Below are positions 1,476 to 22,592 of a DNA stretch of 28,745 bases, piece after piece. Where the stretch lies: NCBI GenBank assembly GCA_018644785.1, contig JABGPV010000028.1, positions 1 to 28,745 on the forward strand, given 5' to 3'. Origin of the DNA: Deltaproteobacteria bacterium. GTDB taxonomy: Bacteria > Desulfobacterota > DSM-4660 > Desulfatiglandales > Desulfatiglandaceae. The notes under the pieces are model-generated. The model worked only from the letters and a program-made list of their open reading frames with translations, was not told the origin of the DNA and searched no databases. Numbering within the stretch: position 1 is the stretch's first letter; every line of letters begins with the position of its first letter. Made by a program: the position numbers and the translations under genes.

Positions 1476-2414
1476 ATGCTTCGATGCGCTTTACAGCTTG
1501 CCTCTACCGCAAGAAAGACACTCCTCGTGACTGTTTTCTTTTTCCTTTCGGGCCTTTTTGCATTTCATGGACAACAGCCCAACGCCCGGGTGCTGACGGA
1601 CGAACTGGGCCGGAAAATGACCGTTCCGGACGATCTCAAACGGGTTGTTTCCCTGGCCCCAAGCATTACTGAAATCATTTTTGCCCTGGGCAAAGAGGAT
1701 CTTCTGAAAGGAGTCACACGGTTCAGCGATTTTCCGGCTGCAGCTGAAAAGCTGCCTAGCGTGGGTTCCTATGTTCACCTGGATCTTGAAAAAATCGTTG
1801 CCCTGAAGCCGGATCTCTGTATCGGCATTAAGGATGGGAACCCCATAGCGGTGGTCAGAAAGCTGGAACACTTGGGCATACCCGTCTATGCCGTTGATCC
1901 CAGAGACCTGAACGCCGTCCTTGAAACCGTTATTCAACTGGGCCATCTCCTGGGCGCGGATCAAAAGGCGAAAGCCATTGTTTCCGATATGCGCACCCGC
2001 ATGGAACGGGTGAAATCCCTGGTGGCCACATCACCCCACAAGCCCCGCGTTTTTTTTCAAATCGGCGTGTCGCCCATTGTTTCCGCGGGCACCCAGACCT
2101 ATATTCACGAATTGATCGTCATGGCCGGGGGCAGAAATCTTGCAGAGGGCCCTGTGGCCTACCCAAGATACAGCCGTGAACAGGTACTGGGCCTTTCCCC
2201 CGACGTTATGATTATCACCTCCATGGCCAGGGGGGCCAGTTTTAAGAGTGTCAAAAAACAATGGTCCAAATGGCCATTCATGCCCGCTGTTCGGGACAAT
2301 CGCATCCTGCTTCTGGATTCCAATCTCTGCGACCGTCCCACGCCCCGGCTCATTGATGGCCTGGAACGGGTTGCTGAAGCGATTCACCCGGATCTCTACA
2401 GGAAAAAACCGTGA
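1476..2414 (+). CDS. btuF: Periplasmic substrate-binding protein of a cobalamin-type ABC importer (BtuF-like)
   Basis: Binds the imported ligand in the periplasm and delivers it to the FecCD-type permease encoded next. The 312-residue product has a basic N-terminus and hydrophobic signal sequence (about residues 14-32), then the two-lobed fold of cluster A-II binding proteins: VVSLAPSITEIIFALG early, KPDLCIG in the first lobe, and the end RLIDGLERVAEAIHP typical of BtuF/FecB proteins. GAGAGGG stands at the right distance before the ATG. The stop overlaps the next start (GTGA). BtuF-like features favour vitamin B12 or a corrinoid, but ferric siderophore or heme cannot be excluded from sequence alone; no TonB receptor or cob gene lies in view. 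Confidence 0.85.
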   Translation: MLRCALQLASTARKTLLVTVFFFLSGLFAFHGQQPNARVLTDELGRKMTVPDDLKRVVSLAPSITEIIFALGKEDLLKGVTRFSDFPAAAEKLPSVGSYVHLDLEKIVALKPDLCIGIKDGNPIAVVRKLEHLGIPVYAVDPRDLNAVLETVIQLGHLLGADQKAKAIVSDMRTRMERVKSLVATSPHKPRVFFQIGVSPIVSAGTQTYIHELIVMAGGRNLAEGPVAYPRYSREQVLGLSPDVMIITSMARGASFKSVKKQWSKWPFMPAVRDNRILLLDSNLCDRPTPRLIDGLERVAEAIHPDLYRKKP

Positions 2415-3418
2415 AAACCCAAAGGCCGCACGTTTTAAAACGCATATGGATCATATCGATTCTGCTCCTCTTTGTTCTCGCCGTAACCATGGTTATAGGC
2501 ATCTCCGTGGGGTCTACCGGCAGCAACTTCAAAGAGACCTTATTCTCTCTTTTGGGCATAGAGAAGGCAGACGCCATGCTTGAAACCATTGTCTGGCGCA
2601 TCCGCCTGCCCCGGGTGTTTCTGGCGACGCTGGTCGGCGCAGCCCTTTCGCTTGGGGGACTGGTTTTTCAGGCCCTGCTTCGGAATCCTCTTGCCGAGCC
2701 CTATATCCTGGGTATTTCAAGCGGATCGGGCATCGGGGCCATTCTCGGCATCCTGACGGGCATGTCCCCTTTTCCCGGCGTAAGCCTCGCCGCTTTTGCC
2801 GGCAGCATGGCCACCCTGTTGCTTCTTCTGTTTATGACGTCGGGCAAAACCATGCTGAAAAAAAACATCCTTCTTCTATCGGGGGTCATGGTCAATGCGT
2901 TCTGCGGGGCGTTTATCATGTTTCTCATATCCATCACCCAGGACGACCGCCTTCACAACATCATCTTCTGGCTCATGGGGGATCTGTCCATGGCGGACCT
3001 TCCACAGGTCTGGCTGCTGGCTGCGGTGGTGGTGCCCTGTACCGTTTTGATTTTCTGTCTTTCCAATACCATGAACCTCTTTCTCATGGGCAAAGAACTG
3101 GCCCAGACCATGGGGGTCAACATTAAAGTCATCACCGCAATCCTTCTGGTGGCGACCTCCATCATGGTCAGCGCCACGGTAGCTGCCTGCGGACCCATCG
3201 GCTTTGTGGGGCTGGTCATTCCACACCTGCTGAGGCTTATTGTAGGACCGGACCACCGGGTGCTGGTTCCCGCCTGCCTGCTGGGGGGGAGCGCCTATGT
3301 GGTGCTTTGTGACATTCTGGCCAGGACATTGCCGGAACAGGGGGAAATGCCCGCCGGCGTCGTAACCGCTATGATCGGTGCACCCCTTTTCATCATATTG
3401 CTAAAAAAATCGTCATGA
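2411..3418 (+). CDS. btuC: FecCD-family ABC permease (BtuC-like)
   Basis: Inner-membrane permease that forms the translocation path, normally as a homodimer. It has 335 residues, the usual family length, with about ten hydrophobic segments. Family landmarks are present: IRLPRVFLATLVGAALSLGG near residues 58-77, NPLAEPYILG near 93-102, and GPIGFVGLVIPHLLR near residues 258-272, which includes the loop that contacts the ATPase. Translation starts with GTG at 2411, overlapping the stop of the binding-protein gene by 4 nt, and the gene overlaps the next by 4 nt, so the three are translationally coupled. Substrate follows that of the binding protein: corrinoid preferred, siderophore possible. Confidence 0.87.
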   Translation: MKTQRPHVLKRIWIISILLLFVLAVTMVIGISVGSTGSNFKETLFSLLGIEKADAMLETIVWRIRLPRVFLATLVGAALSLGGLVFQALLRNPLAEPYILGISSGSGIGAILGILTGMSPFPGVSLAAFAGSMATLLLLLFMTSGKTMLKKNILLLSGVMVNAFCGAFIMFLISITQDDRLHNIIFWLMGDLSMADLPQVWLLAAVVVPCTVLIFCLSNTMNLFLMGKELAQTMGVNIKVITAILLVATSIMVSATVAACGPIGFVGLVIPHLLRLIVGPDHRVLVPACLLGGSAYVVLCDILARTLPEQGEMPAGVVTAMIGAPLFIILLKKSS

Positions 3419-4245
3419 AACCATCTATCCAAGCCACCTCCCTGCATGCCGCCTATGGATCCCTGTCGGTACTTCAGGATGTTTCCTTTTCCGTGCCCAA
3501 AGGGGAATTTTTCATCGTTATCGGTCCCAACGGTTCGGGAAAGACCACTTTGCTGAAAATCCTATCCGCCATCACGCCATTTAAGAGGGGAAACCTTGAA
3601 ATTGCAGGGCTCCCCATGGCAAAATACTCCCGACGTTCTCTGGCAAAGATCATGGCCCTGGTCCCCCAGACCGTTCCCGAAGATCTTCCGTTTACCGTCA
3701 GAGAATTAATCCTCATGGCCCGAACACCCCGTATGGGTCTTTTAGGACTGGAAGGGGATCTGGATATCAGAATAGCTGAAGAAGCCATGGCCTTTACAAG
3801 AGTGGAATCCCTGGCCGAGCGAAAAATGGATCAGTTGAGCGGTGGGGAACGTCAAAGGGTATTCATTGCCAGAGCCATCTGCCAGGAACCGCAGATCATC
3901 CTGCTTGATGAACCCACGGCGGCCCTGGATCTGGCCCATCAGGTGCGGATCATGGATCTGATGGAAAAGCTGCGGGAGGAAAAAGGCCTCACCATTGTGA
4001 TGGTATCCCACGATATCAACCTGGCGGCCATGTACGGTAACCGCCTCATGCTGCTCAAAAAAGGACGGATTGTTAAAATGGGCCTGCCCGCGGAGGTATT
4101 CACCTTCAAAACCCTGGAAGAAGCTTACGAGTGCCCTCTTCTGGTGGATGAAAGCCCACTAGGGAATTGCCAGCGGGTAACGCTGGTGCCCCGGAAATTT
4201 ATCAATCGGGATTTACAGGCCATGGCCCAAAAGAATCGGGACTGA
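3415..4245 (+). CDS. btuD: ABC transporter ATPase of the cobalamin-type importer (BtuD-like)
   Basis: Cytoplasmic ATPase that powers the permease. In the 276-residue product the Walker A motif is GPNGSGKTT (residues 37-45), the Q-loop is VPQTVPED (83-90), the signature is LSGGERQ (141-147), Walker B is IILLDEP (161-167), and the switch His lies in MVSHD. The ATG overlaps the permease stop by 4 nt. The last 40 or so residues extend past the core and contain no motif I recognise. Family membership is certain; the cobalamin assignment rests on operon context. Confidence 0.88.
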   Translation: MKPSIQATSLHAAYGSLSVLQDVSFSVPKGEFFIVIGPNGSGKTTLLKILSAITPFKRGNLEIAGLPMAKYSRRSLAKIMALVPQTVPEDLPFTVRELILMARTPRMGLLGLEGDLDIRIAEEAMAFTRVESLAERKMDQLSGGERQRVFIARAICQEPQIILLDEPTAALDLAHQVRIMDLMEKLREEKGLTIVMVSHDINLAAMYGNRLMLLKKGRIVKMGLPAEVFTFKTLEEAYECPLLVDESPLGNCQRVTLVPRKFINRDLQAMAQKNRD

Positions 4246-6041: not shown

Positions 6042-6755
6042 TTATGATGCCTTGATCCGAGTGTTGTTATGTTTGTTGATCAGCACGGGGGCAATGCGCC
6101 TCGCCCAGGATCTGATGGATCCCCAGTCCCTGTAGTCCCCTTCTGCCACATCTTTTCCCTGCATTTTCATTTTCATGATGATTCGTACCGGGAAGGAAAG
6201 CTTATCATATGCCAGGGCGCCCGCAAAGAGACCTGTGTCCACGGGTATCACATGGGGTGTTTTCTCTCGGAGAGGTTCCAGGAAGCCGGTCGCCTTTTTC
6301 CGATTCTCCTCCGTGGAACGGACCAGTGTCAGACACGTGAGAAAATAGGCCACGGGGATGTGGCGAAGAACGTTCTGATGCGCCTCTACGAAATCTGATG
6401 CTTCGGGCAACCAGCGGTCACTGCGAATGGCGCTTCCGATCACAATGCCATGATAGGACGTCAGGTCTGAAACACTATCTACCTGGAGCACGTCCACCGA
6501 TGCTCCCCTGTCGCAAAGGGTCCCTGCTATGCTTCCGGCGACGCCTCCCGTGGAGCCGCATCGACTGGCGTAGGCGACCAGGATTTTTGAATCCTGTTGG
6601 TTTTCATTGCATCGGCTTTCCAGAAATTTGACTCCGGCGTCAGATCCGATTTCAGCCAAAGCCACGCGCCTTCCCACTGCCAGGCTCCCCAGCGCACCCC
6701 CTGCCATCAGCGCGCTTTTGCCGATAAATTCCCGTCTTGAGAGATATTCTATCAT
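6042..6755 (-). CDS. Tat-exported flavodoxin-domain protein
   Basis: A flavodoxin fold binding FMN, predicted to act outside the cytoplasm. The 237-residue product begins with a twin-arginine signal, SRREFIGKSALMAGGALG (about residues 6-23), with a likely signal end after AEIG. The flavodoxin domain runs from about residue 57: ILVAYASRCGSTGGVAG is the strand and phosphate loop, IVIGSAIRSDRWLPEA the region near the isoalloxazine. The fold resembles the HemG/menaquinone-dependent oxidase branch. The ATG at 6755 has GGAA upstream; ATG 6773 is an alternative adding six residues, and longer frames would read through the 6836-6871 hairpin. A Tat signal fits export of a folded FMN protein. It follows the Spy-like gene on the same strand, so an envelope redox or stress role is inferred. 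Confidence 0.82.
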   Translation of the reverse strand: MIEYLSRREFIGKSALMAGGALGSLAVGRRVALAEIGSDAGVKFLESRCNENQQDSKILVAYASRCGSTGGVAGSIAGTLCDRGASVDVLQVDSVSDLTSYHGIVIGSAIRSDRWLPEASDFVEAHQNVLRHIPVAYFLTCLTLVRSTEENRKKATGFLEPLREKTPHVIPVDTGLFAGALAYDKLSFPVRIIMKMKMQGKDVAEGDYRDWGSIRSWARRIAPVLINKHNNTRIKAS

Positions 6756-6835
6756 GATATTTCCTTTCTTCATTGTGGTGAATTCCTTTTTCTCCGAATC
6801 TCCTGTGTGGTTTTTGGGTTTTCGGGATGCGTCAT

Positions 6836-6871
6836 GGTTTCCCTGGGAAAAGTTCACTCCCCAGGGAAACC
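6836..6871. repeat. Perfect 12-bp inverted repeat between spy-like and flavodoxin genes
   Basis: GGTTTCCCTGGG (6836-6847) and its exact complement CCCAGGGAAACC (6860-6871) are separated by 12 nt. In the direction of the two flanking minus-strand genes no T-run follows, so it may be an mRNA-stabilising or partial-termination hairpin, or a protein site, and not a clean terminator. Confidence 0.6.
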
Positions 6872-9719: not shown

Positions 9720-11132
9720 TCAGATACCGAATCGAAGTATCTTACGACGAAGGGTGTTTTTGTCTATTCCGAGTTCTTTGGCCGTAGCGACTTTTTTCCC
9801 CTGATTTCTTTCAAGGGCCTGGCGGATGGCGCGCTTCTCTATTTCCTTAAGCGTCAATCCCGGTAAAATCGGGTTCAGTGCTGTTGATGGAAGGATATGA
9901 TCCGGAAGGCAGGCAACGCGGATGATATTCTCCCTGCAGAGAACAAAGGCATGCTCTATGGCATTTTCCAGTTCGCGTATGTTGCCGGGCCAATCGTGCA
10001 GCATCAGCGTGGCCATGGCTCTCTGGGACATCCCTGCAATGTTCTTTCCCGTCAGATGATTAAAGCGTTCAATGAAATGATCCGCCAGAAGAGGGATGTC
10101 TTCTTTTCGATCCGCCAATGACGGCAGGGAAAGCTTCACAACGTTAATCCGGTAGTATAAATCCTTCCTGAATGCTCCGGTTCTAACCAGCTCTTCCAGA
10201 TTGCTGTGCGTAGCGGCAATGATTCTGGCGTTGGTACTGATCGGTTCATTGGAGCCCAGGGGTTCATAGGTCTTATTTTCAAGAACCCGCAAAAGACGGA
10301 CCTGCATGGATGACGATATGTCTCCGATCTCGTCCAACAGAAGGGTACCGTCCCGGGCTTGTTCAAACCTTCCGGGCTTGTCCGTTTTAGCATCGGTGAA
10401 AGCGCCCGCCTTGTAACCAAAAAGCTCGGATTCCACCAGAGTATCCGGCAATGCCCCGCAGTTGACGGCCACAAAAGGTCCATTTTTAGTTAGGCTGTTG
10501 TTGTGAATCGCACGGGCAACGAGTTCCTTCCCCGTACCGCTGGCCCCCTCAATCAATACCGTGCTGTGACTTTGGGAGATCTGAGGCAGGATTGAAAAAA
10601 TCTTGTTCATCTCAGCACTTTTACTCACGATATCCTCATAGGAGTGTTGCTTGAAAAGACTTTTTCTTAATTCGCTGATATCACTCAAATCTCTGAAGGT
10701 CACCACACCCCCGATGGTTTTCTTATTGCCATCTCTCAAAAGGGTCGTTGTGGTACTGATGGGGATACGTTTTTTGTCGGCACGAAGGATATAGATGGGT
10801 CTATTCAATATCGGGGAACCGGTGTCCATGGTTTCGCGGAGAACGCAATTACTTTCGCAGACATTGCTGCGGAAAACTTCAAAGCATGGCCGGCCAACCG
10901 CCTCATTTATGGGAATTCCGGTAATTTTTTCCGCGGCGCGATTAAAGTAAGTGACACGCCAGTTCAAATCCAACGCGAATACACCATCCGTGATGTTGTC
11001 CAGTATGATCTGATACTGATCGTCGAGGCTTTTGTCAGACGGGGCCGCTTTCTTAGAATCTTGTTTATGAATCTTCGACGTCGGAATGGATTTATTAACG
11101 CAATGGCGGGGTTGTGGGTTATTCGGGTTCAC
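9720..11132 (-). CDS. PAS-domain sigma-54-dependent transcriptional activator
   Basis: Enhancer-binding protein that remodels sigma-54 RNA polymerase. The 470-residue product has a PAS domain (about 38-150) with three Cys, C83, C92 and C96, in the segment CFEVFRSNVCESNC, so redox or metal sensing is plausible. The AAA+ domain (about 165-400) has Walker A GASGTGKE (196-203), Walker B LLLDEIGD (264-271) and the sigma-contact loop, which reads GAFTDA in place of GAFTGA (243-248). A Fis-type helix-turn-helix ends the protein (KVATAKELGIDKNTLRRK). Translation starts at GTG 11132 behind GAGGG. It diverges from the cytochrome c cluster, which is preceded by a -24/-12-like promoter; that cluster is its likely target. 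Confidence 0.92.
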   Translation of the reverse strand: MNPNNPQPRHCVNKSIPTSKIHKQDSKKAAPSDKSLDDQYQIILDNITDGVFALDLNWRVTYFNRAAEKITGIPINEAVGRPCFEVFRSNVCESNCVLRETMDTGSPILNRPIYILRADKKRIPISTTTTLLRDGNKKTIGGVVTFRDLSDISELRKSLFKQHSYEDIVSKSAEMNKIFSILPQISQSHSTVLIEGASGTGKELVARAIHNNSLTKNGPFVAVNCGALPDTLVESELFGYKAGAFTDAKTDKPGRFEQARDGTLLLDEIGDISSSMQVRLLRVLENKTYEPLGSNEPISTNARIIAATHSNLEELVRTGAFRKDLYYRINVVKLSLPSLADRKEDIPLLADHFIERFNHLTGKNIAGMSQRAMATLMLHDWPGNIRELENAIEHAFVLCRENIIRVACLPDHILPSTALNPILPGLTLKEIEKRAIRQALERNQGKKVATAKELGIDKNTLRRKILRFGI

Positions 11133-11414
11133 TTTGTTCCCTCTACAAGGACGTTAATGGCGCAGAATGTTCCCTGAATATTTATCATTTAGAATCAAAA
11201 ATCAAGCATTTATTTCAATATCTTTTAATTCCAAACAGATAGGATACATGGTTTATATAACATTACTTCGGTATGTTTTTTGCTAATGTCCTTCATATGG
11301 ACGTCAGGCAATTTTGACGCAGTTCGGCACCAATTCCGGCGGGCGTCATCTTTTTCGGCAGGGGGTGCTTTCATCAACCATCTCCATGACAAAACTCTAA
11401 AGGAGGGCGTAGAA
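11133..11414. other. Divergent control region of the sigma-54 cluster
   Basis: This 282-bp region lies between the activator and the cytochrome gene. It contains the -24/-12-type promoter at 11269-11284 and an A+T-rich stretch upstream of it (11170-11260) where enhancer sites would be expected. Downstream of the promoter, TGACGC (11315-11320) and GCGTCA (11343-11348) form an inverted pair in the untranslated leader; its role is unknown. No gene is seen. Confidence 0.5.
11269..11284 (+). promoter_or_regulatory. Sigma-54 (-24/-12) promoter candidate for the cytochrome cluster
   Basis: CGG at 11269-11271 and TTGCT at 11280-11284 put the invariant GG (11270-11271) and GC (11282-11283) exactly 10 bp apart, the defining spacing. 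The -12 half is a full match to TTGCT; the -24 half (CGGTATG against TGGCACG) is partial. The start would be near 11295, about 120 nt before the ATG. A sigma-54 activator gene next door supports it. Confidence 0.55.
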
Positions 11415-11756
11415 ATGAAAAAAGCGTTGGGCTTCAAGAAACTCGTTTGGATGCTTATGGGTGCAGGGGGCTTGCTGTTCGGCTTTCTCATGTTTGGAAG
11501 CAACAGCGTTGCCATGCAGGAGGATAAAGGTAAGAAAATGAATTATACGAAGGCTTATGCTCTTTATCAGCAAAAATGCCTGGGATGTCACATTTCAGTT
11601 GCCGATCCTGAAAAGGCGGGTCAGACACGTGATGACTGGTATCTGGTGGTTCAAAAGATGCAAAATCACGGGCTTGATCTGACCGATGCTGAGAGCAGTA
11701 CGATTACGTCCCTGCTCTACAATCTGAGGATGGGTATAGAAAAAGAGCCGGGCTAG
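11415..11756 (+). CDS. Exported monoheme c-type cytochrome
   Basis: Small electron carrier in the periplasm or anchored to the membrane. The 113-residue product has a hydrophobic N-terminal segment (about residues 12-32), possibly uncleaved, and one heme c site, CLGCH, near residue 55 in YALYQQKCLGCHIS. A downstream Met (VVQKMQNHG) could be the sixth heme ligand, as in small class I cytochromes. The end of the protein (ITSLLYNLRMGIEKEPG) is helical. AAAGGAGGG lies before the ATG. It is the first gene of the putative sigma-54-controlled cluster and probably links the cluster to the respiratory chain. Confidence 0.85.
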   Translation: MKKALGFKKLVWMLMGAGGLLFGFLMFGSNSVAMQEDKGKKMNYTKAYALYQQKCLGCHISVADPEKAGQTRDDWYLVVQKMQNHGLDLTDAESSTITSLLYNLRMGIEKEPG

Positions 11757-11793
11757 CAAACAACCATTGCCAATAAAAAAGGGAGGGAAAACA

Positions 11794-12882
11794 ATGAAAC
11801 GAAGAACATTTTTAAAATCCTTGGCGGCCACGGGCGTTGCGGCTTCCTTGACCGGACCAGGGGCACTGACCCGTGAGGCCCATGCACGGAAAAAGGTTGA
11901 TTTTGGCCAAGTAAAAGACGTGCGCATTGATGTGCTCAGTGAAACCAGTTGGTTCGACAATGACAACTTGAAAAAGCACATCGTGGATTATGGTGGCGCC
12001 ATGACCAATCAGTACACCATTCCGTGGGACTGGGACAATGCCGGTGGCTATATGGCCCTGGTAACGGTGACCCAACTGGATGGTAAAAAGAGAAAAATTC
12101 TCCTGGACTCAGGCTGGAACAACGACTGGGTGGATTATATCTACGAGATGAACGGCATACCCGACATGTTGAAGAGCGGTGAGATAGAATTCATGGTCCT
12201 CTCCCACTGGCATCTGGACCATTACTGGGGAATTGAGTCGACACTGAAACACAACCCCAATATTACCATTTATGCGCCGGCAACCTATTATCCGGAAGAT
12301 ATGAAACTGTTAAAGGGCGCGCACCTGTCGGCTAAAAACAAAGAGGGCAAAGAGGTCCAGATCTGCAAAAATGATGTCCCCCATACCGGAAAACTGGTTT
12401 TGTGTAAACCGGAGGGCGAAAAAGATGGTATCTACAATCCCATTCCAGGTATGGCCATAAAAGATTTCGACGTTCCCATTCTGCTGCGGGTACGGGGAGA
12501 AAATGTCCTTTATTTCAACGTTAAAGACAAGGGAATCGTCACCGTGACCGGCTGCTGTCATCCGGGAATCCTTTCACTGTTCTCTTACGCACGGAAGAAT
12601 TTCAAGGGGTATAAGCCTTACGGATGCTACGGCGGTTTACACATTACGCTCTTTGAGACATGGGACCCCAAATTTGATGATATCATCAAAGGCGTGAAGG
12701 CATTCAAAATCCAAAAGCTGGCCTGCAACCACTGCACCGGATGGATCTGGGCTGAAAAGGCCGCCGCCGCCGGTGTTCCCGTCGTCAAAGGAACCAATAA
12801 ATATAAGACATATGCAAAACAGTCTTCAGTGGCCACTGGGAGTAACGCCTTTTTGACCAACGGCGACCACATTGTTTTCTAA
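11794..12882 (+). CDS. Tat-exported metallo-beta-lactamase-fold hydrolase
   Basis: A metal-dependent enzyme predicted to work outside the cytoplasm. The 362-residue product starts with a Tat signal (KRRTFLKSLAATGVAAS, cleavage probably near AHA-RKK). The metal motif HWHLDH is at residues 138-143; further candidate ligands are H256 in CCHPG, H283 in GLHIT and H313 in CNHCTG. The CCHPGI segment resembles the CSHAGI element of the MBL branch that includes 7,8-dihydropterin-6-methyl-4-aminobenzene-5'-phosphate synthase, but export and unusual Cys content argue for another substrate. The ATG at 11794 follows GGGAGGG and places the twin Arg at residues 3-4. It is 37 nt after the cytochrome gene, same operon. 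Confidence 0.85.
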   Translation: MKRRTFLKSLAATGVAASLTGPGALTREAHARKKVDFGQVKDVRIDVLSETSWFDNDNLKKHIVDYGGAMTNQYTIPWDWDNAGGYMALVTVTQLDGKKRKILLDSGWNNDWVDYIYEMNGIPDMLKSGEIEFMVLSHWHLDHYWGIESTLKHNPNITIYAPATYYPEDMKLLKGAHLSAKNKEGKEVQICKNDVPHTGKLVLCKPEGEKDGIYNPIPGMAIKDFDVPILLRVRGENVLYFNVKDKGIVTVTGCCHPGILSLFSYARKNFKGYKPYGCYGGLHITLFETWDPKFDDIIKGVKAFKIQKLACNHCTGWIWAEKAAAAGVPVVKGTNKYKTYAKQSSVATGSNAFLTNGDHIVF

Positions 12883-12983
12883 TCGTCATTTTTACTGGTT
12901 TTTTAATAGGCAATGCTAATGGGGGGAAGGGTGGATCTAGAAATCGCCTTTTCCCCTCATTCCACTGATGGAGGGTCGAGCAG

Positions 12984-14204
12984 ATGAATACGGATGCGGA
13001 AACAGGGCAAAGATTCAATTATCTTTTTGGATTGATTAATCTGGTGGCAATTTTTTGTATTGTATGGCTGCTATGGTATATTTTCATGAACCCGAATACC
13101 GTCATGAAATTGTATACCCCCATGTATGGTTTTTCGCTGGTCGTTGGATTTCTTGCCGCCATCGTGTTTTTAAACAATGTTGCCGGTGGCTATCCATTTC
13201 CGGAAACATTGGGACGGGTCCAACGGGGGATACTGATGACCGTTGTTGCCTTTTTGCTGATGCTTTTCCTGGTTTACGTTGTCTTCTGGGGCTTTATCGG
13301 AAAATTCGGCATCGCTTATTTCAGCCCTCAATCGATCATTGCTTCGGGTGGTCAGGGTGCTGAAATATTTAATGCCCGGGAAAACGCATCCACCGCCATT
13401 GTTTATTATTGCACCGCATTTTTGCTGATAGCGCTTTTCTGGAGTACCGGTTTCGGCCGATGGCCCTGGCACACAAACAGTCGGGCTGTTACAGCATGGT
13501 CCAAATTCTTTGCCGTCACCTTTTTCACCGTCATCGTCTATACCCTCATGTTTCATCCCCATGTCTGTTATCTTTTCTACCCGGCCCAGGACAAGGCCGG
13601 CGTGATATCCTGGTGGGCGGAACTTGCCGGTACCGGCAGCGCCTTTTTCGGGCTTGGCCTTGTCCTTTGCGTCCTGTTCTGGATCATCGTCTCAGATTTA
13701 TTGTGGGAAGGTTATCCGTGGAAATATCTGGAAAAGGACGGAGAATCCACCTGGGCAAAAGGGCTGGTGGTCTTTATCGTAACCGTTGGCTTGGGTATCA
13801 TCATTCTCTATGTCCTGATGAGTATTATGAACTATTATTGGGATGAACCGTTTATGGGAGGGCAGTACACCGACGGCCCGGATTTCCGTTTCCTCCATGC
13901 CGGGGAAATATGCGGATTTTTTATCCTGGCGGCGTTTATTCTGAAAAATTATTTCAACAATTTTCCCAATACGAATAGCCTCGCGCTGAGTGCCGTTATA
14001 CGGACCATTCTCGCTGTGGGCGGGGGCATGCTGTTTTACTGGTTTTACTATTCTCCCCTGGCGACTTTTTTCCTGGCAAAAGTGCCCGGTATTGCCCAGC
14101 CCGGCGACACATCCCTTGTATGGGTCATTCTTTTTTTGAGCATTATCATGGTTCAGGCGGATTTTTTTGAGGGATGGCCTCTCAAAAAAAATAGGGCGAA
14201 ATAG
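12984..14204 (+). CDS. Polytopic membrane protein of the sigma-54 cluster, unknown function
   Basis: The 406-residue product has about eleven hydrophobic segments spread along its length and short polar loops, typical of a transporter or membrane redox protein. One helix boundary carries FHPHVCYLFYPAQDKAG (about residues 191-207), with two His and a Cys that could bind heme or metal; other His lie in PWHTNS and FLHAGE. No transporter family signature was recognised. GGAGGG precedes the ATG at a proper distance. It follows the hydrolase gene by about 100 nt, a gap holding a G-rich hairpin at about 12920-12958, and precedes the next gene by 2 nt. Context suggests a membrane partner of the exported cytochrome and hydrolase. 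Confidence 0.75.
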   Translation: MNTDAETGQRFNYLFGLINLVAIFCIVWLLWYIFMNPNTVMKLYTPMYGFSLVVGFLAAIVFLNNVAGGYPFPETLGRVQRGILMTVVAFLLMLFLVYVVFWGFIGKFGIAYFSPQSIIASGGQGAEIFNARENASTAIVYYCTAFLLIALFWSTGFGRWPWHTNSRAVTAWSKFFAVTFFTVIVYTLMFHPHVCYLFYPAQDKAGVISWWAELAGTGSAFFGLGLVLCVLFWIIVSDLLWEGYPWKYLEKDGESTWAKGLVVFIVTVGLGIIILYVLMSIMNYYWDEPFMGGQYTDGPDFRFLHAGEICGFFILAAFILKNYFNNFPNTNSLALSAVIRTILAVGGGMLFYWFYYSPLATFFLAKVPGIAQPGDTSLVWVILFLSIIMVQADFFEGWPLKKNRAK

Positions 14205-14206
14205 AT

Positions 14207-14485
14207 ATGGTGGATAAGAGCAAAAGAACATTCTGCAGAAGATACTTTCTCGAGCAGATCGGGAAGGTTGTTGAAGGCTTTGGGGAGGGTGTTAAAGAAG
14301 CACAGGAGAACCTGGCATTTGATGAATTTTTTGACTCTTATGATTCCAGCTATGCCCTTACCCTTGCCTATCCGGATGATATTTTGATGGCGACCGCCCA
14401 AAAACACGGCATCGACACCGAAGGGCGGGAGAAAAACGAGATCGTAAAGGAGTTGTTTGAAAAGCATGGCGGATACAATCACTGA
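14207..14485 (+). CDS. Small soluble protein, unknown function
   Basis: The 92-residue product is charged and helical, with no signal sequence or membrane segment. It starts with KSKRTFCRRYFLEQIGKVVEGF, which superficially looks like a Tat n-region (CRRYFL) but lacks the hydrophobic stretch, so it should be cytoplasmic. Tail residues KELFEKHGGYNH run into the next gene. The ATG is 2 nt after the membrane-protein stop without a strong ribosome site, implying translational coupling. The last 20 nt overlap the next frame. Role unknown; conserved spacing in other genomes would show whether it is a chaperone or accessory factor for the cluster. Confidence 0.7.
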   Translation: MVDKSKRTFCRRYFLEQIGKVVEGFGEGVKEAQENLAFDEFFDSYDSSYALTLAYPDDILMATAQKHGIDTEGREKNEIVKELFEKHGGYNH

Positions 14486-15449
14486 GTGCGAGAGCTTCTT
14501 TCAGGAAAAAATCAACAATATGTTGGTGACCACATCGTGGGTTGACAACCTGAAGGACTTGCTGGGAGTGGAGGCGGTCAGTCAGATCTGGGGAGACGCT
14601 CCGGCCTGGTATGTGTGGCTTTCGCATGCTCAAGGCGCCTATCAGCTCCAGCTGGTGGACGCCGGGGTTGATGAAAACAGTCCCGCAACAAAACAGGGTT
14701 TCTTTTCCATAAAGTGCTATCCATTCCATGACGCAACCGTTTTTGACGCCTTCTCCTATGAGGAACAATACTTAAGCCAGAGCGGGTTTTTCGATGATAC
14801 CCATACGCCCCGGTTTGAAGAGAAGGAAAAAATCCCCGATTCCCTGTTCAATGTGGCCGCCATGGAATACAGGGTGAATGAGGATGACACCATGGCGTGT
14901 TTTACGCTGGATAGCCTGGATACCATGCGCTGCGTCTATCCCGAGGAAACCGTACTGAACTTTGACCTCATTAATAAAAGTCGGCGATACGCGAAAGGTG
15001 AAACCGGCCGATCGGTGCCCGGCTGGGAACTGGGGCATCCTGTTTTTGACAGGCTTTTGTCCATGTATGCCTTTTACAGCAAAGCCAAACCGGTTCGGCT
15101 GCGCATCACACGCTCTCCGGGATTCCAATACGTCCATACCGGTAACCAACTATTTGAGTGCGTGGATACCCCGGATACACACCGATTGTCGGCATCCGTT
15201 TTTTTTGCACCCCAGGGCAACCCCGATCATGGTGTGAATTTGAATGAGTTGGACATGATGGACCAGGCGTCAGAACAGGGTCAAGCTGAGATCCTTTTGG
15301 ACCGGGCCTTTCCCTGCAGTCATTTTCATGCATCCGATAAGATGGCATTTGCCAAAATAGATGAAGATATGCAGGTCAACGAACTCTGGTGGTCCCTGGC
15401 CCATACGGAATACAAATCCGAACTTGCCTCAACCTGCGGATGCCACTGA
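14466..15449 (+). CDS. Soluble protein of unknown function in the sigma-54 cluster
   Basis: A 327-residue product with no signal, membrane segment or familiar fold motif. Notable parts are WGDAPAWYVWLSHAQGAYQ near residues 42-60, HFHASDKMAFAKIDEDMQ near the end, and a terminal CGCH that could bind metal. The ATG at 14466 overlaps the previous gene by 20 nt. A TTG at 14457, 4 nt after AAAGGAG, is an alternative adding three residues; the ATG stands 13 nt from the same site. Position between membrane, cytochrome and NifX-like genes suggests a cytoplasmic maturation or metal-handling function, but this is context only. Confidence 0.72.
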   Translation: MADTITECESFFQEKINNMLVTTSWVDNLKDLLGVEAVSQIWGDAPAWYVWLSHAQGAYQLQLVDAGVDENSPATKQGFFSIKCYPFHDATVFDAFSYEEQYLSQSGFFDDTHTPRFEEKEKIPDSLFNVAAMEYRVNEDDTMACFTLDSLDTMRCVYPEETVLNFDLINKSRRYAKGETGRSVPGWELGHPVFDRLLSMYAFYSKAKPVRLRITRSPGFQYVHTGNQLFECVDTPDTHRLSASVFFAPQGNPDHGVNLNELDMMDQASEQGQAEILLDRAFPCSHFHASDKMAFAKIDEDMQVNELWWSLAHTEYKSELASTCGCH

Positions 15450-15504
15450 GCACTCGAGGGATAGTATAAAAATAGACGAAACAGGCTCGTTTTGGTGATG
15501 GGAA

Positions 15505-15855
15505 ATGATTCGAATTGCCATACCCATATTCCATAATAGAGTTTCACCGGTGCTGGATACCTGCACCCGTCTTTTAATTGTTGATTTCGAGGGGAAATCC
15601 GGCGTTGAAAAGAGAGAGATTTCTTTTGATGTCTACTCCCAATCCGAACGGTTCGAGATCGTAAAAAATCTGAACCCCGATGCCATCATCTGCTGCGGCA
15701 TCAGTGAAGTATTTGACAAAATGCTTCAATCCGCCGGCATCAGACTGATCAGCGGAATTGTCGGCGATGTGGAACAGGTTGCAGAGGCGTTTCTCTCTAA
15801 CCGGCTTGATGACCCCTGCTTCCGGATGCCGGGATACAAAGAAGGCGAATCATAG
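15505..15855 (+). CDS. NifX/NifB-C-terminal-type (PF02579) protein
   Basis: Family members bind iron-molybdenum-type cofactors or iron-sulfur clusters and often carry out metal-cofactor handling in anaerobes, without being tied to nitrogen fixation. The 116-residue product shows the family start, MIRIAIPIFHNRVSPVLDTC, and the central NPDAIICCGISEVFDKMLQSAGI, equivalent to the conserved G-rich helix region. Cys in IICCGI and CFRMPG could bind metal. It is 55 nt after the preceding gene and, on spacing and strand, the likely last gene of the sigma-54 cluster. No nif genes are in view. Confidence 0.85.
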   Translation: MIRIAIPIFHNRVSPVLDTCTRLLIVDFEGKSGVEKREISFDVYSQSERFEIVKNLNPDAIICCGISEVFDKMLQSAGIRLISGIVGDVEQVAEAFLSNRLDDPCFRMPGYKEGES

Positions 15856-15867
15856 CGGAGAAGCATA

Positions 15868-15990
15868 TTGCGTTTTTTCAAGGCTTCTTCGTATATTCCC
15901 GACTGTCTCTACGGAGATCCGGAAGTGGCCGCCGTGGGTCTTACCGAAGACCAGGCCCTGGGAGTAGACGGCGAGGCTTTTTCAGTCTGA
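15868..15990 (+). pseudogene. Remnant of a pyridine-nucleotide disulfide oxidoreductase
   Basis: A 40-codon stretch ends at TGA 15988 and reads YIPDCLYGDPEVAAVGLTE, the conserved start of the dimerisation domain in dihydrolipoamide dehydrogenase and mercuric reductase proteins, where PxxxYTDPEVAxVGLTE is typical. The FAD and NAD domains that should precede it are absent: upstream lies the NifX-like gene, with 12 nt between. The rest of the dimerisation domain is lost after VDGEAFSV. A deletion relic, most likely not expressed as a working protein. Confidence 0.72.
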
Positions 15991-20985: not shown

Positions 20986-22233
20986 TTACCGCAGATGATT
21001 GACAAACGCTTCGGCCAGTCCCGGAAAGTTTTCCGGAGGGACATGATATTCCGAATATACCTCTTCCCACTGGGACAGAAACTTCGTTTTCATTTGATCT
21101 ATGATCTTTTCACCGTCTTCCTCTGGCAAACCAAAAACACCGCGGGAAGATAAGGCGTTTTGCAGGGTCGCCTCCCGGCTGCCGTTCATTCCCAAGCCGA
21201 GGGTTAATCTCCGGGGCTCTTCAGGCCCCATGTCCGGTTGTGGAACAATATCGTAGGCAGGCGAAAGCCGCCAACCTTGGCCTGAAATATGGATAAACCC
21301 GTGATTTTTGAGATGGTCATCGGTGTTGTTGCACAATACGTTGAAAACCATTCGCATAAAAAGCTGTTTTAGATCTTTGTGAATGGATGTCGAAGCGCAG
21401 TATTTTCTCATCTGAACGGCAATATCCTGATAGGTTCCTTCCGTTAATTGATCCGTTCCCAGCAGTGTAGCGGCAGAAATAAAGGGGATTCTGTTTCCGT
21501 TGAGATCGCGGTCAAATCTTAAAATCAAGAAAACATCCCTGCCGGCCACTGAAATGGTTTTTGCTTTAGGAACAACAATGCCGCACATTCGGGCAAGGTG
21601 CAGGTTTGCATTTTCAATGCGGCATGTGCTCCATGCATCATACTGTCTGCTGAACTTAGCCATCCACATTCGGCCTTCATGCGTTATGGGCGCTTTTGGC
21701 TGTGCGCCCCCTAAGGAAGATCCCCGAACAAGGAACCGGCGATATTCAGGTGAAATCTTTTTTTCATTTGTAATCTCATCCACGGCTTTAATCATGCTGT
21801 CCAGATCAAGTTCCGCTCCATGGGGCGGATAATTGGCCCACCCCGGATCAATCGGGCCTGGACCCTGCTCCAAAGAACTGCCAAAACCTAGAGCGCCGAT
21901 TCGGTCCTCGACTGGAATGGCGGTCAGATATTCAAATTCTCCCGGTGATTGGGGGTCCGCTGCTCTGTCAAGGAGGTGCCTGCCCCATCCATCAGGCATT
22001 GTATCCCGTATTCCTCCGAAAAGGGGTGCTTTGGGTGTCGATCTGAAAAGGGCGTCACTTAGGGGAAGCTGAACCGGGTCAATGGATATGGCGTCTATGC
22101 GCTGTAGGTACTTTTTACCGTACTGGAACGTGGAAAGGATGTCTCGATTGTCTTCCTGAATGGTCAAGTATCCGCAGGGAACCCACTTCCCGTTTAAATG
22201 AATGAATACATATGCGTCATTCTGCTTTGCCAT
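20986..22233 (-). CDS. hipA: HipA-family Ser/Thr kinase toxin
   Basis: HipA-type kinases phosphorylate a translation-related target (glutamyl-tRNA synthetase in E. coli) and cause growth arrest or persistence, restrained by HipB. The 415-residue product has an N-terminal HipA_N domain (about 5-130), the glycine-rich SSLGGAQPK loop (172-180) containing the Ser that is autophosphorylated in E. coli HipA's equivalent region, a catalytic NNTDDHLKNHG (302-312; Asp305/His307) and the metal Asp328 in LSPAYDIVPQ. Kinase motifs look intact. It starts 11 nt after the hipB stop on the same strand. Target is unknown and may differ, as in other HipA subfamilies. Confidence 0.9.
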   Translation of the reverse strand: MAKQNDAYVFIHLNGKWVPCGYLTIQEDNRDILSTFQYGKKYLQRIDAISIDPVQLPLSDALFRSTPKAPLFGGIRDTMPDGWGRHLLDRAADPQSPGEFEYLTAIPVEDRIGALGFGSSLEQGPGPIDPGWANYPPHGAELDLDSMIKAVDEITNEKKISPEYRRFLVRGSSLGGAQPKAPITHEGRMWMAKFSRQYDAWSTCRIENANLHLARMCGIVVPKAKTISVAGRDVFLILRFDRDLNGNRIPFISAATLLGTDQLTEGTYQDIAVQMRKYCASTSIHKDLKQLFMRMVFNVLCNNTDDHLKNHGFIHISGQGWRLSPAYDIVPQPDMGPEEPRRLTLGLGMNGSREATLQNALSSRGVFGLPEEDGEKIIDQMKTKFLSQWEEVYSEYHVPPENFPGLAEAFVNHLR

Positions 22234-22244
22234 GGGTTTTTCAG

Positions 22245-22592
22245 CTAAAAATCCAGATCGACTTTACGGGAAGGTCGAATGCGTTTTTTTTGATCATAGC
22301 TTTGCTTGTCAATTATGTTTGCGGTGAGGTCGTTTTCGGGTTTCGCCAGATGGCTTAGATCGTTTTCAAGGCCCAACGTCAAAAGCGCCGCCGCCAGGAT
22401 GCCGAAACTCACACCCGCATCTCCGGATTCAAGCCGGTTGAGCGTCTTTCGTGTGACAAACATGCGTTCGGCCATGTCCTGCATTGTTAAACCTCGTCGC
22501 TTTCTGGCCAGTTTGATATTCAGACCCACCTTAGCCATTTTTTGTCGCAACGATAGCGGCAACCCATCTTTTCCAAGCGTCTTTCGTGTCAT
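22245..22592 (-). CDS. hipB: HipB-type XRE antitoxin and repressor
   Basis: DNA-binding antitoxin that blocks HipA and represses the operon. The 115-residue product has the Xre/HTH fold at about residues 24-78: IKLARKRRGLTMQDMAERMFVTRKTLNRLESGD. The C-terminal tail (about 80-115) is charged and could contact HipA. A strong sigma-70 promoter (TTGACA, 16 bp, TATAAT) ends 31 bp upstream, and two half-similar repeats around it are likely HipB sites. It is longer than E. coli HipB by about 27 residues. Confidence 0.86.
   Translation of the reverse strand: MTRKTLGKDGLPLSLRQKMAKVGLNIKLARKRRGLTMQDMAERMFVTRKTLNRLESGDAGVSFGILAAALLTLGLENDLSHLAKPENDLTANIIDKQSYDQKKRIRPSRKVDLDF

What the first reader, a model, noticed from the sequence alone, without database searches (positions are those of the whole stretch)
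9720..15855. Sigma-54-controlled cluster of exported cytochrome, Tat-exported MBL hydrolase, 11-TM protein, two unknowns and a NifX-like protein
Six plus-strand genes with short gaps, the last three closely spaced, stand behind a -24/-12-type promoter facing a PAS/sigma-54 activator. An exported metal-dependent hydrolase with a monoheme cytochrome, a membrane protein with His/Cys pairs and two unknown soluble proteins do not match a pathway I know. A plausible reading is a periplasmic oxidation or demetallation linked to the respiratory chain, with the NifX-like protein and the CGCH protein handling a metal cofactor. The combination, not any single gene, is the candidate novel system.
Basis: partly seen in the sequence, partly recalled or inferred. 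Interest (0 to 1): 0.75.

Follow-up and report, generated by a model that had tools for sequence, protein, structure and literature searches.

The report
Conserved exported hydrolase–membrane protein operon
Some sulfate-reducing bacteria and a few relatives share an undescribed set of genes for an exported metal-dependent hydrolase, a membrane protein of unknown type and a probable metal-handling helper, which may release and take up small organic acids.

Summary
The cluster is real and conserved. Of 34 loci found with the membrane protein, 34 carry the Tat-type MBL hydrolase beside it and 33 the 327-aa CGCH protein. In 297 sampled genomes of the phylum, the 17 with a family-A/B membrane protein are the same 17 with a close MBL. 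The core is MBL–membrane protein–CGCH, usually with the 92-aa protein. The cytochrome is optional. The sigma-54 activator and NifX-like protein come as one optional module; some other loci have a GntR-type regulator.

New here: in a sister family the CGCH domain is fused to a CobW/COG0523 metallochaperone, which supports metal handling. Sister families lie beside hydroxy-acid and acyl-CoA genes. Best reading, mostly inferred: CGCH loads metal into the hydrolase before export, the hydrolase frees a small organic acid in the periplasm, and the membrane protein imports it. Neither the membrane protein nor CGCH has a Pfam or NCBIfam family or a convincing fold match. Substrate unknown.

The parts
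9720..11132 (-). PAS-AAA+-Fis sigma-54 activator (470 aa), divergent
   Evidence: Pfam PAS, Sigma54_activat, HTH_8; homologue in the same place in 11 of 34 loci
11269..11284 (+). putative -24/-12 promoter CGGTATGTTTTTTGCT
   Evidence: alone p 0.067; 8 scored activator-linked loci combined p 1.2e-6
11424..11756 (+). exported monoheme cytochrome c, optional part
   Evidence: CLGCH; PF09098 25.3 bits; homologue in 19 of 29 family-A loci with at least 800 nt upstream
11794..12882 (+). Tat-type metallo-beta-lactamase-fold hydrolase, core
   Evidence: PF00753; RRxFxK and HxHxDH conserved in 35 of 35; PDB relative 2p4z E 1e-18; beside the membrane protein in 34 of 34 loci
12984..14204 (+). membrane protein of unknown family with 10 predicted long helices, core
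   Evidence: no Pfam/NCBIfam family; model pLDDT 87; conserved loops on one predicted periplasmic face
14207..14485 (+). 92-aa soluble protein
   Evidence: no family over cut-off; homologue in 31 of 34 loci
14466..15449 (+). 327-aa protein ending in CGCH, core; homologous to a domain fused to CobW in family B2
   Evidence: 33 of 34 loci; model pLDDT 88; hhalign 99.6%, E 3e-24 to the fused domain
15505..15855 (+). NifX-like protein (PF02579), part of the optional activator module
   Evidence: 27.2 bits, cut-off 26.3; co-occurrence with the activator 10/0/0/16 in family A

Best explanation
A conserved periplasmic hydrolase-transporter module. The CGCH protein, in the cytoplasm, loads metal into the MBL, which is exported folded by Tat (inferred). 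In the periplasm the MBL cleaves an ester-, lactone- or amide-type substrate and frees a small hydroxy- or keto-carboxylate (inferred). The 10-helix membrane protein, whose conserved loops are predicted to face the periplasm, takes up the product (inferred). A cytochrome c is added in many members of the window's family. Expression is set in some loci by a PAS/sigma-54 activator with its NifX-like partner, in others probably by a GntR-type regulator. Shown by sequence: the conserved core, the export signature, the activator-NifX coupling, the CobW fusion. Predicted: the topology. Inferred: substrate class, transport and metal loading.
For: Core conserved in 34 loci (MBL 34, CGCH 33) and in 17 of 17 genomes by a membrane-protein-first and an MBL-first search of the same 297 (hypergeometric p 5e-28, with the 477-bit limit set after seeing the scores and without correction for relatedness). 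CGCH domain fused to CobW (PF02492+PF07683) in sister family B2: Walker A motif in 9 of 9 loci, Pfam-checked in 2, homology 99.6%, E 3e-24. RRxFxK in 35 of 35 aligned MBLs. Membrane protein: as a group the odd loops are the most conserved and poorest in K/R. Family C membrane proteins, whose genomes show no MBL match, have an acyl-CoA synthetase gene directly beside them in 4 of 9 loci, two of these with DUF294, and lie near thiolase and acyl-CoA dehydrogenase genes in 2 more; the other 3 do not. Family B1, 8 genomes: LutA-, LutB-, GlcD- and GlcF-type lactate-oxidation genes downstream in 2, a 3-hydroxybutyrate-dehydrogenase-like gene directly upstream in 3, LarB-, LarC- and LarE-type genes downstream in 1. 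TRAP transporter genes co-directional upstream in L025 and L099.
Against: In the window's own family A no catabolic gene was seen conserved with the core; only L013 (TRAP, LarA, GlcF and GlcD types, convergent) and L025 (TRAP) point to organic acids. LarA is common in the phylum (167 of 297 genomes) and not significantly enriched in core-bearing genomes (13 of 17, p 0.13). No transporter fold was convincingly matched. CobW, ExbB, ExbD and TonB type neighbours fit metal uptake as well. Substrate and metal are untested. Family B1 loci are few and partly close relatives.
Confidence: 0.35

Rival explanations
1. A metal or metallophore uptake system: the exported MBL opens or strips a metal chelate in the periplasm, the membrane protein imports the metal or chelate, and the CGCH/CobW protein receives the metal in the cytoplasm.
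For: CobW fusion; ExbB, ExbD and TonB type genes near it in 4 of 9 B2 loci (L069, L070, L071, L075), Pfam-checked in L069; conserved His and Cys in a predicted periplasmic loop of the membrane protein.
Against: The regulators identified are PAS/sigma-54, GntR or Crp types, not Fur or Zur; none of the genes put through Pfam was a TonB receptor, though this was not searched for systematically; families C and B1 point to carboxylates; H191 is lost in family C.
Confidence: 0.17
2. A periplasmic redox system: MBL, cytochrome and membrane protein oxidise a substrate and feed electrons to the respiratory chain.
For: Homologous cytochrome in 19 of 29 family-A loci, its nearest Pfam model the heme domain of quinohemoprotein amine dehydrogenase; His305 invariant in 28 aligned membrane proteins.
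Against: No cytochrome found within 1 kb upstream or 2.5 kb downstream of the MBL-membrane-protein pair in 9 of those 29 loci and in 13 of 13 family-B loci; nearest solved relatives of the MBL are named as hydrolases.
Confidence: 0.15
3. The membrane protein is itself a metalloenzyme or assembly factor, and MBL and CGCH serve its maturation.
For: Strong conservation on the predicted periplasmic face with conserved His; no convincing fold match.
Against: Family C membrane proteins were seen without MBL or CGCH in the 9 loci examined; H191 and R302 are not kept there.
Confidence: 0.15
4. A signal-degrading module: the exported MBL is a lactonase acting on signal molecules.
For: Weak profile match to 4-pyridoxolactonase (E 0.0014) and, for a B2 MBL, to AidB lactonase (E 0.03, far below cut-off).
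Against: Does not explain the membrane protein or CGCH; the better solved matches are 2p4z, 7dck and Tm1679, named only as hydrolases or uncharacterized.
Confidence: 0.06

Closest known systems
COG1237-type MBL hydrolases (2p4z, 7dck, Tm1679; COG number recalled; JGI label 'dihydropterin...phosphate synthase')
   Same: HxHxDH, GC.H, GG.H and HCTG motifs align
   Different: Twin-arginine start and fixed gene partners; extra Cys before two late His (GCCH, CNHC), which most of 17 unlinked relatives partly share
COG0523/CobW G3E metallochaperones
   Same: B2 CGCH proteins carry PF02492 + PF07683 at their C-terminus
   Different: The window's CGCH protein has the N-terminal domain and a Cys/His tail, no GTPase
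SLAC1/TehA channels
   Same: 10 long helices and hints of a repeated unit (family C unit pairs at 92%); the five-fold SLAC1 fold is recalled
   Different: No sequence similarity to the one SLAC1 protein compared (0.4%)
acs-actP type acetate-uptake operons (recalled)
   Same: Family C: DUF294, acyl-CoA synthetase and membrane protein in a row in L064 and L068
   Different: The family-C protein tested has no transporter family in Pfam; families A and B have MBL and CGCH instead

Membership tests
MBL-fold hydrolase (PF00753) | HxHxDH motif and profile match | tested here: met
   23.6 bits, cut-off 22.7; H138, H140, D142, H143 invariant in 35; 2p4z E 1e-18
Tat substrate | twin-arginine signal over the model cut-off | tested here: inconclusive
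   19.6 against 22.7 and 15.6 against 16.7, but the motif is invariant in 35 of 35
Nitro_FeMo-Co (NifX-like) | PF02579 over cut-off | tested here: met
   27.2 against 26.3
COG0523/CobW (window CGCH protein) | G3E GTPase domain | tested here: not met
   no Pfam family for the window protein; only the N-terminal domain is shared with the fused B2 proteins
SLAC1/TehA channel (membrane protein) | sequence or fold similarity | tested here: inconclusive
   no Pfam match; hhalign 0.4% to one protein; not among the rows shown, which excludes nothing
START/Bet v 1 fold (CGCH protein) | structural match | tested here: inconclusive
Sigma-54-dependent operon | conserved -24/-12 site beside an activator gene | tested here: met
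   8 of 12 loci scored, combined p 1.2e-6 with recalled weights; the L001 site lacks the first G of the -24 GG; expression not testable here
Carboxylate transporter | transport of a carboxylate | not testable with these tools
   needs an assay

The most novel reading that the evidence does not exclude
The 10-helix protein and the CGCH domain are the founders of a new class of membrane module, with folds not seen in solved structures, in which an exported, pre-metallated MBL docks on the periplasmic face of a pseudo-repeated helical barrel and couples hydrolysis to import of its product, using a dedicated metallochaperone domain that in some lineages is fused to a CobW GTPase.
Probability: 0.25. 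Interest if true: 0.85.

Novelty: new variant of a known kind. Interest (0 to 1): 0.6.

Why it matters
It names a conserved but unannotated module of three to four genes in sulfate reducers (a membrane-protein match in 10 of 30 genomes of the family of G001, one of them a distant family-C fragment), with a membrane protein family and a putative metal-handling domain that have no Pfam or NCBIfam entry. The CobW fusion and the hydroxy-acid neighbours make its function testable. Some sources call the membrane protein 'AAT family amino acid transporter', for which nothing here gives support.

Tried and rejected
Promoter by pattern count alone: first with a wrong spacing, then TGGC-N7-TTGC, both at chance; comparison across loci was needed. 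Position weights for the -24/-12 score were recalled. In one search four activator loci (L010, L016, L017, L018) were dropped because no heme codon was recognised. One search, with cruder regions and partly wrong gene starts, found good sites in L016 and L018, a weak one in L010, and strong ones in L014 and L021, which lack an adjacent activator.

Internal repeats: in the family-A membrane protein the best unit pair reached 15%; only family C gave about 92%, for two of ten unit pairs. SLAC1: the first comparison used a wrong ORF and was repeated with the right one; no similarity. Inverted-repeat activator sites: not conserved.

LarA as a genome-wide partner: common and not significantly enriched. 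MBL relatives without the membrane protein (17 loci, L080-L096, several on contigs under 6 kb): the ten neighbours from five loci put through Pfam showed no shared theme; L091 has TRAP and LarA genes and LutA- and LutB-like stretches. The activator-NifX count was first entered as 10/0/0/12 and corrected by script to 10/0/0/16.

Phages and plasmids: no membrane-protein match; MBL only distant matches in 5 plasmid records at 23-25% identity. Solved structures by sequence: none for the membrane protein; one match at E 0.96 for CGCH. Foldseek had no hit under E 0.001 for either model. The PHROGs and PADLOC libraries were not searched.

Literature: listings only, apart from passages of PMC5193443 (an unrelated RNA-processing protein). 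Searches listed no paper that I could recognise by title or abstract start as describing this cluster; one search returned no paper, and searches matched many papers of which 15 and 12 were listed. No full text was read.
Full report
Observation. The six ORFs, their order and the divergent activator are as described, with small corrections. The membrane protein is modelled with ten long helices and several short ones at pLDDT 87 and pTM 0.90. The 92-aa gene overlaps the CGCH gene by 20 nt.

Conservation. An alignment of membrane-protein homologues found 34 loci in the GTDB contig collection, most of them titled as Desulfobacterota or Deltaproteobacteria, with one Rhodoferax MAG, one Azospirillaceae MAG and one unnamed metagenome genome. 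The MBL was beside the membrane protein in 34 of 34 (split in L010, cut off in L024), the CGCH protein in 33 of 34 (L003 ends 237 nt after the membrane protein), the 92-aa protein in 31 of 34 (not L027, L029, L030). Those loci were found through the membrane protein, so I repeated the test through the MBL. In 297 genomes of the phylum, 28 have a membrane-protein match at E 1e-5 or better: 17 of family A/B (E 2.3e-62 or better), 10 with a distant family C only and one fragment (G027). In the same 297, 35 have an MBL match at E 1e-30 or better; the 17 that score 477 bits or more are the same 17 genomes, and the other 18 score 446 or less. Loci of 17 of those 18 were fetched, and none showed the membrane or CGCH protein, though several contigs are short; G027, with fragments of both genes on different contigs, was not fetched. 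The overlap has p 5e-28, with a limit set after seeing the scores and no correction for relatedness. A match of some family is in 10 of 30 genomes of the family of G001 and in 1 of 289 of the class of G004, which is the centre genome itself.

What is core and what is not. A homologous cytochrome lies upstream of the MBL in 18 of the 29 family-A loci with at least 800 nt there, and downstream in L032; L031 has a CxxCH ORF downstream that the cytochrome model does not recognise; 9 have none within 1 kb upstream or 2.5 kb downstream. None was found in 13 family-B loci. The activator and the NifX-like protein occur together: of 26 family-A loci with enough flank, 10 have both, none one alone, 16 neither (Fisher p 1.9e-7, not corrected for relatedness). 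Of the 8 truncated loci, L005 has the activator and L006 the NifX gene. Outside family A the link is looser: L104 has both, L073 and L098 have a close activator without a detected NifX, and L074 and L079 a NifX-like gene without a detected activator. Six of the 34 loci carry a GntR-type regulator within 3 kb upstream, four of them a PAS protein as well, none of the six the activator (the FCD domain was checked by Pfam in L047); L027 has a Crp/Fnr-type regulator. So the NifX-like protein is probably part of the control system (inference).

Promoter. The candidate at 11269 is not significant alone. Eight of the twelve activator-linked loci, scored for a -24/-12 site, give a combined p of 1.2e-6, and seven of the eight have the site 223-292 nt before the heme codon; the L001 site lacks the first G of the -24 GG.

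The MBL. It belongs with 2p4z, 7dck and Tm1679. R3, R4, F6, K8 and the HxHxDH motif are invariant in 35 of 35 aligned, membrane-linked members. Of 17 unlinked relatives, four clearly keep an RRxF-type start (L080-L083), L091 is uncertain, L096 is a fragment, and the rest show none at that place. The export signature is therefore invariant in the linked group only.

The CGCH protein. The model has pLDDT 88 and no convincing fold match. In family B2 (9 loci, cluster c2) the homologous domain, matched over 244 columns with hhalign probability 99.6% and E 3e-24, is followed by a Walker A motif in 9 of 9 and by a CobW GTPase with its C-terminal domain in the two Pfam-checked (L071, L077). The fused gene follows the MBL in L069-L073, L075 and L077, lies 3 kb further on in L074, and is divergent in L076. 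In the window the same domain ends instead in CGCH, whose two Cys are nearly invariant. I infer that this protein handles metal, most simply for the MBL, since Tat exports folded proteins (recalled).

Neighbours outside the core. Family C genomes show no MBL match; 4 of 9 loci have an acyl-CoA synthetase gene directly beside the membrane protein (L060, L062, L064, L068), two of those with DUF294, and 2 more (L066, L067) lie near thiolase and acyl-CoA dehydrogenase genes; L061, L063 and L065 show neither. Family B1, 8 genomes: two have LutA-, LutB-, GlcD- and GlcF-type lactate-oxidation genes downstream (L058, L099; LutB in L058 over its NCBIfam cut-off, GlcD just under), three a 3-hydroxybutyrate-dehydrogenase-like gene directly upstream of the MBL (L097, L100, L101; best model 202 bits, below its cut-off of 307), one (L079) a LarC-type nickel-insertion gene with genes that I read as LarB and LarE from weaker or more general Pfam matches, and two are on contigs under 7 kb. 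In family A only L013 and L025 showed such links among the genes examined. LarA occurs in 167 of 297 genomes and is not significantly enriched with the core (13 of 17, p 0.13). The organic-acid reading is therefore stronger for B1 and C than for the window's own family.

Mechanism and judgement. The most economical reading is metal loading of the MBL by the CGCH protein, Tat export, periplasmic hydrolysis that frees a small carboxylate, and import by the membrane protein, under a sigma-54 or GntR-type regulator. I give it 0.35. Metal uptake remains a serious rival because of CobW and the ExbB, ExbD and TonB type genes in 4 of 9 B2 loci. No paper describing the cluster was recognised in the search listings named under Tried and rejected.

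Noticed in passing
window 15868-15990: Short open stretch reading ...GDPEVAAVGLTEDQAL..., which looks (recalled) like a remnant of a pyridine-nucleotide-disulfide oxidoreductase C-terminus between NifX and the next gene.
   Followed up: partly
window 20986-22592 (-): HipA-like and HipB-like ORF pair (recalled from sequence).
   Followed up: no
window 6042-6857 (-): Flavodoxin-like protein with a twin-arginine-type N-terminus, unusual for a flavodoxin (recalled).
   Followed up: no
window 1476-4245: B12/siderophore-type ABC importer genes (binding protein, permease, ATPase; recalled).
   Followed up: no
window 9720-11132: The PAS domain of the activator has a Cys-rich stretch CFEVFRSNVCESNC, similar in the L104 homologue; possibly a redox or metal sensor.
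   Followed up: no
L091:3845-6391: 849-aa protein with a LarA lactate racemase in its C-terminal half and an N-terminal half of about 430 aa without a Pfam family, near DctP, DctQ and an MBL gene.
   Followed up: no
L025:7795-8697 and L034:12481-13050: A second MBL gene directly beside the core operon.
   Followed up: partly
L010:5132-6045: The MBL gene is split over two frames on this contig; left as found.
   Followed up: no
L058 and L012 (genome G002); L099 and L105 (genome G610): Two genomes carry both a family-A and a family-B1 copy of the system.
   Followed up: partly
L084-L090, L094: MBL relatives without an RRxF-type start and without the membrane protein nearby: a probably cytoplasmic branch of unknown role.
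   Followed up: partly
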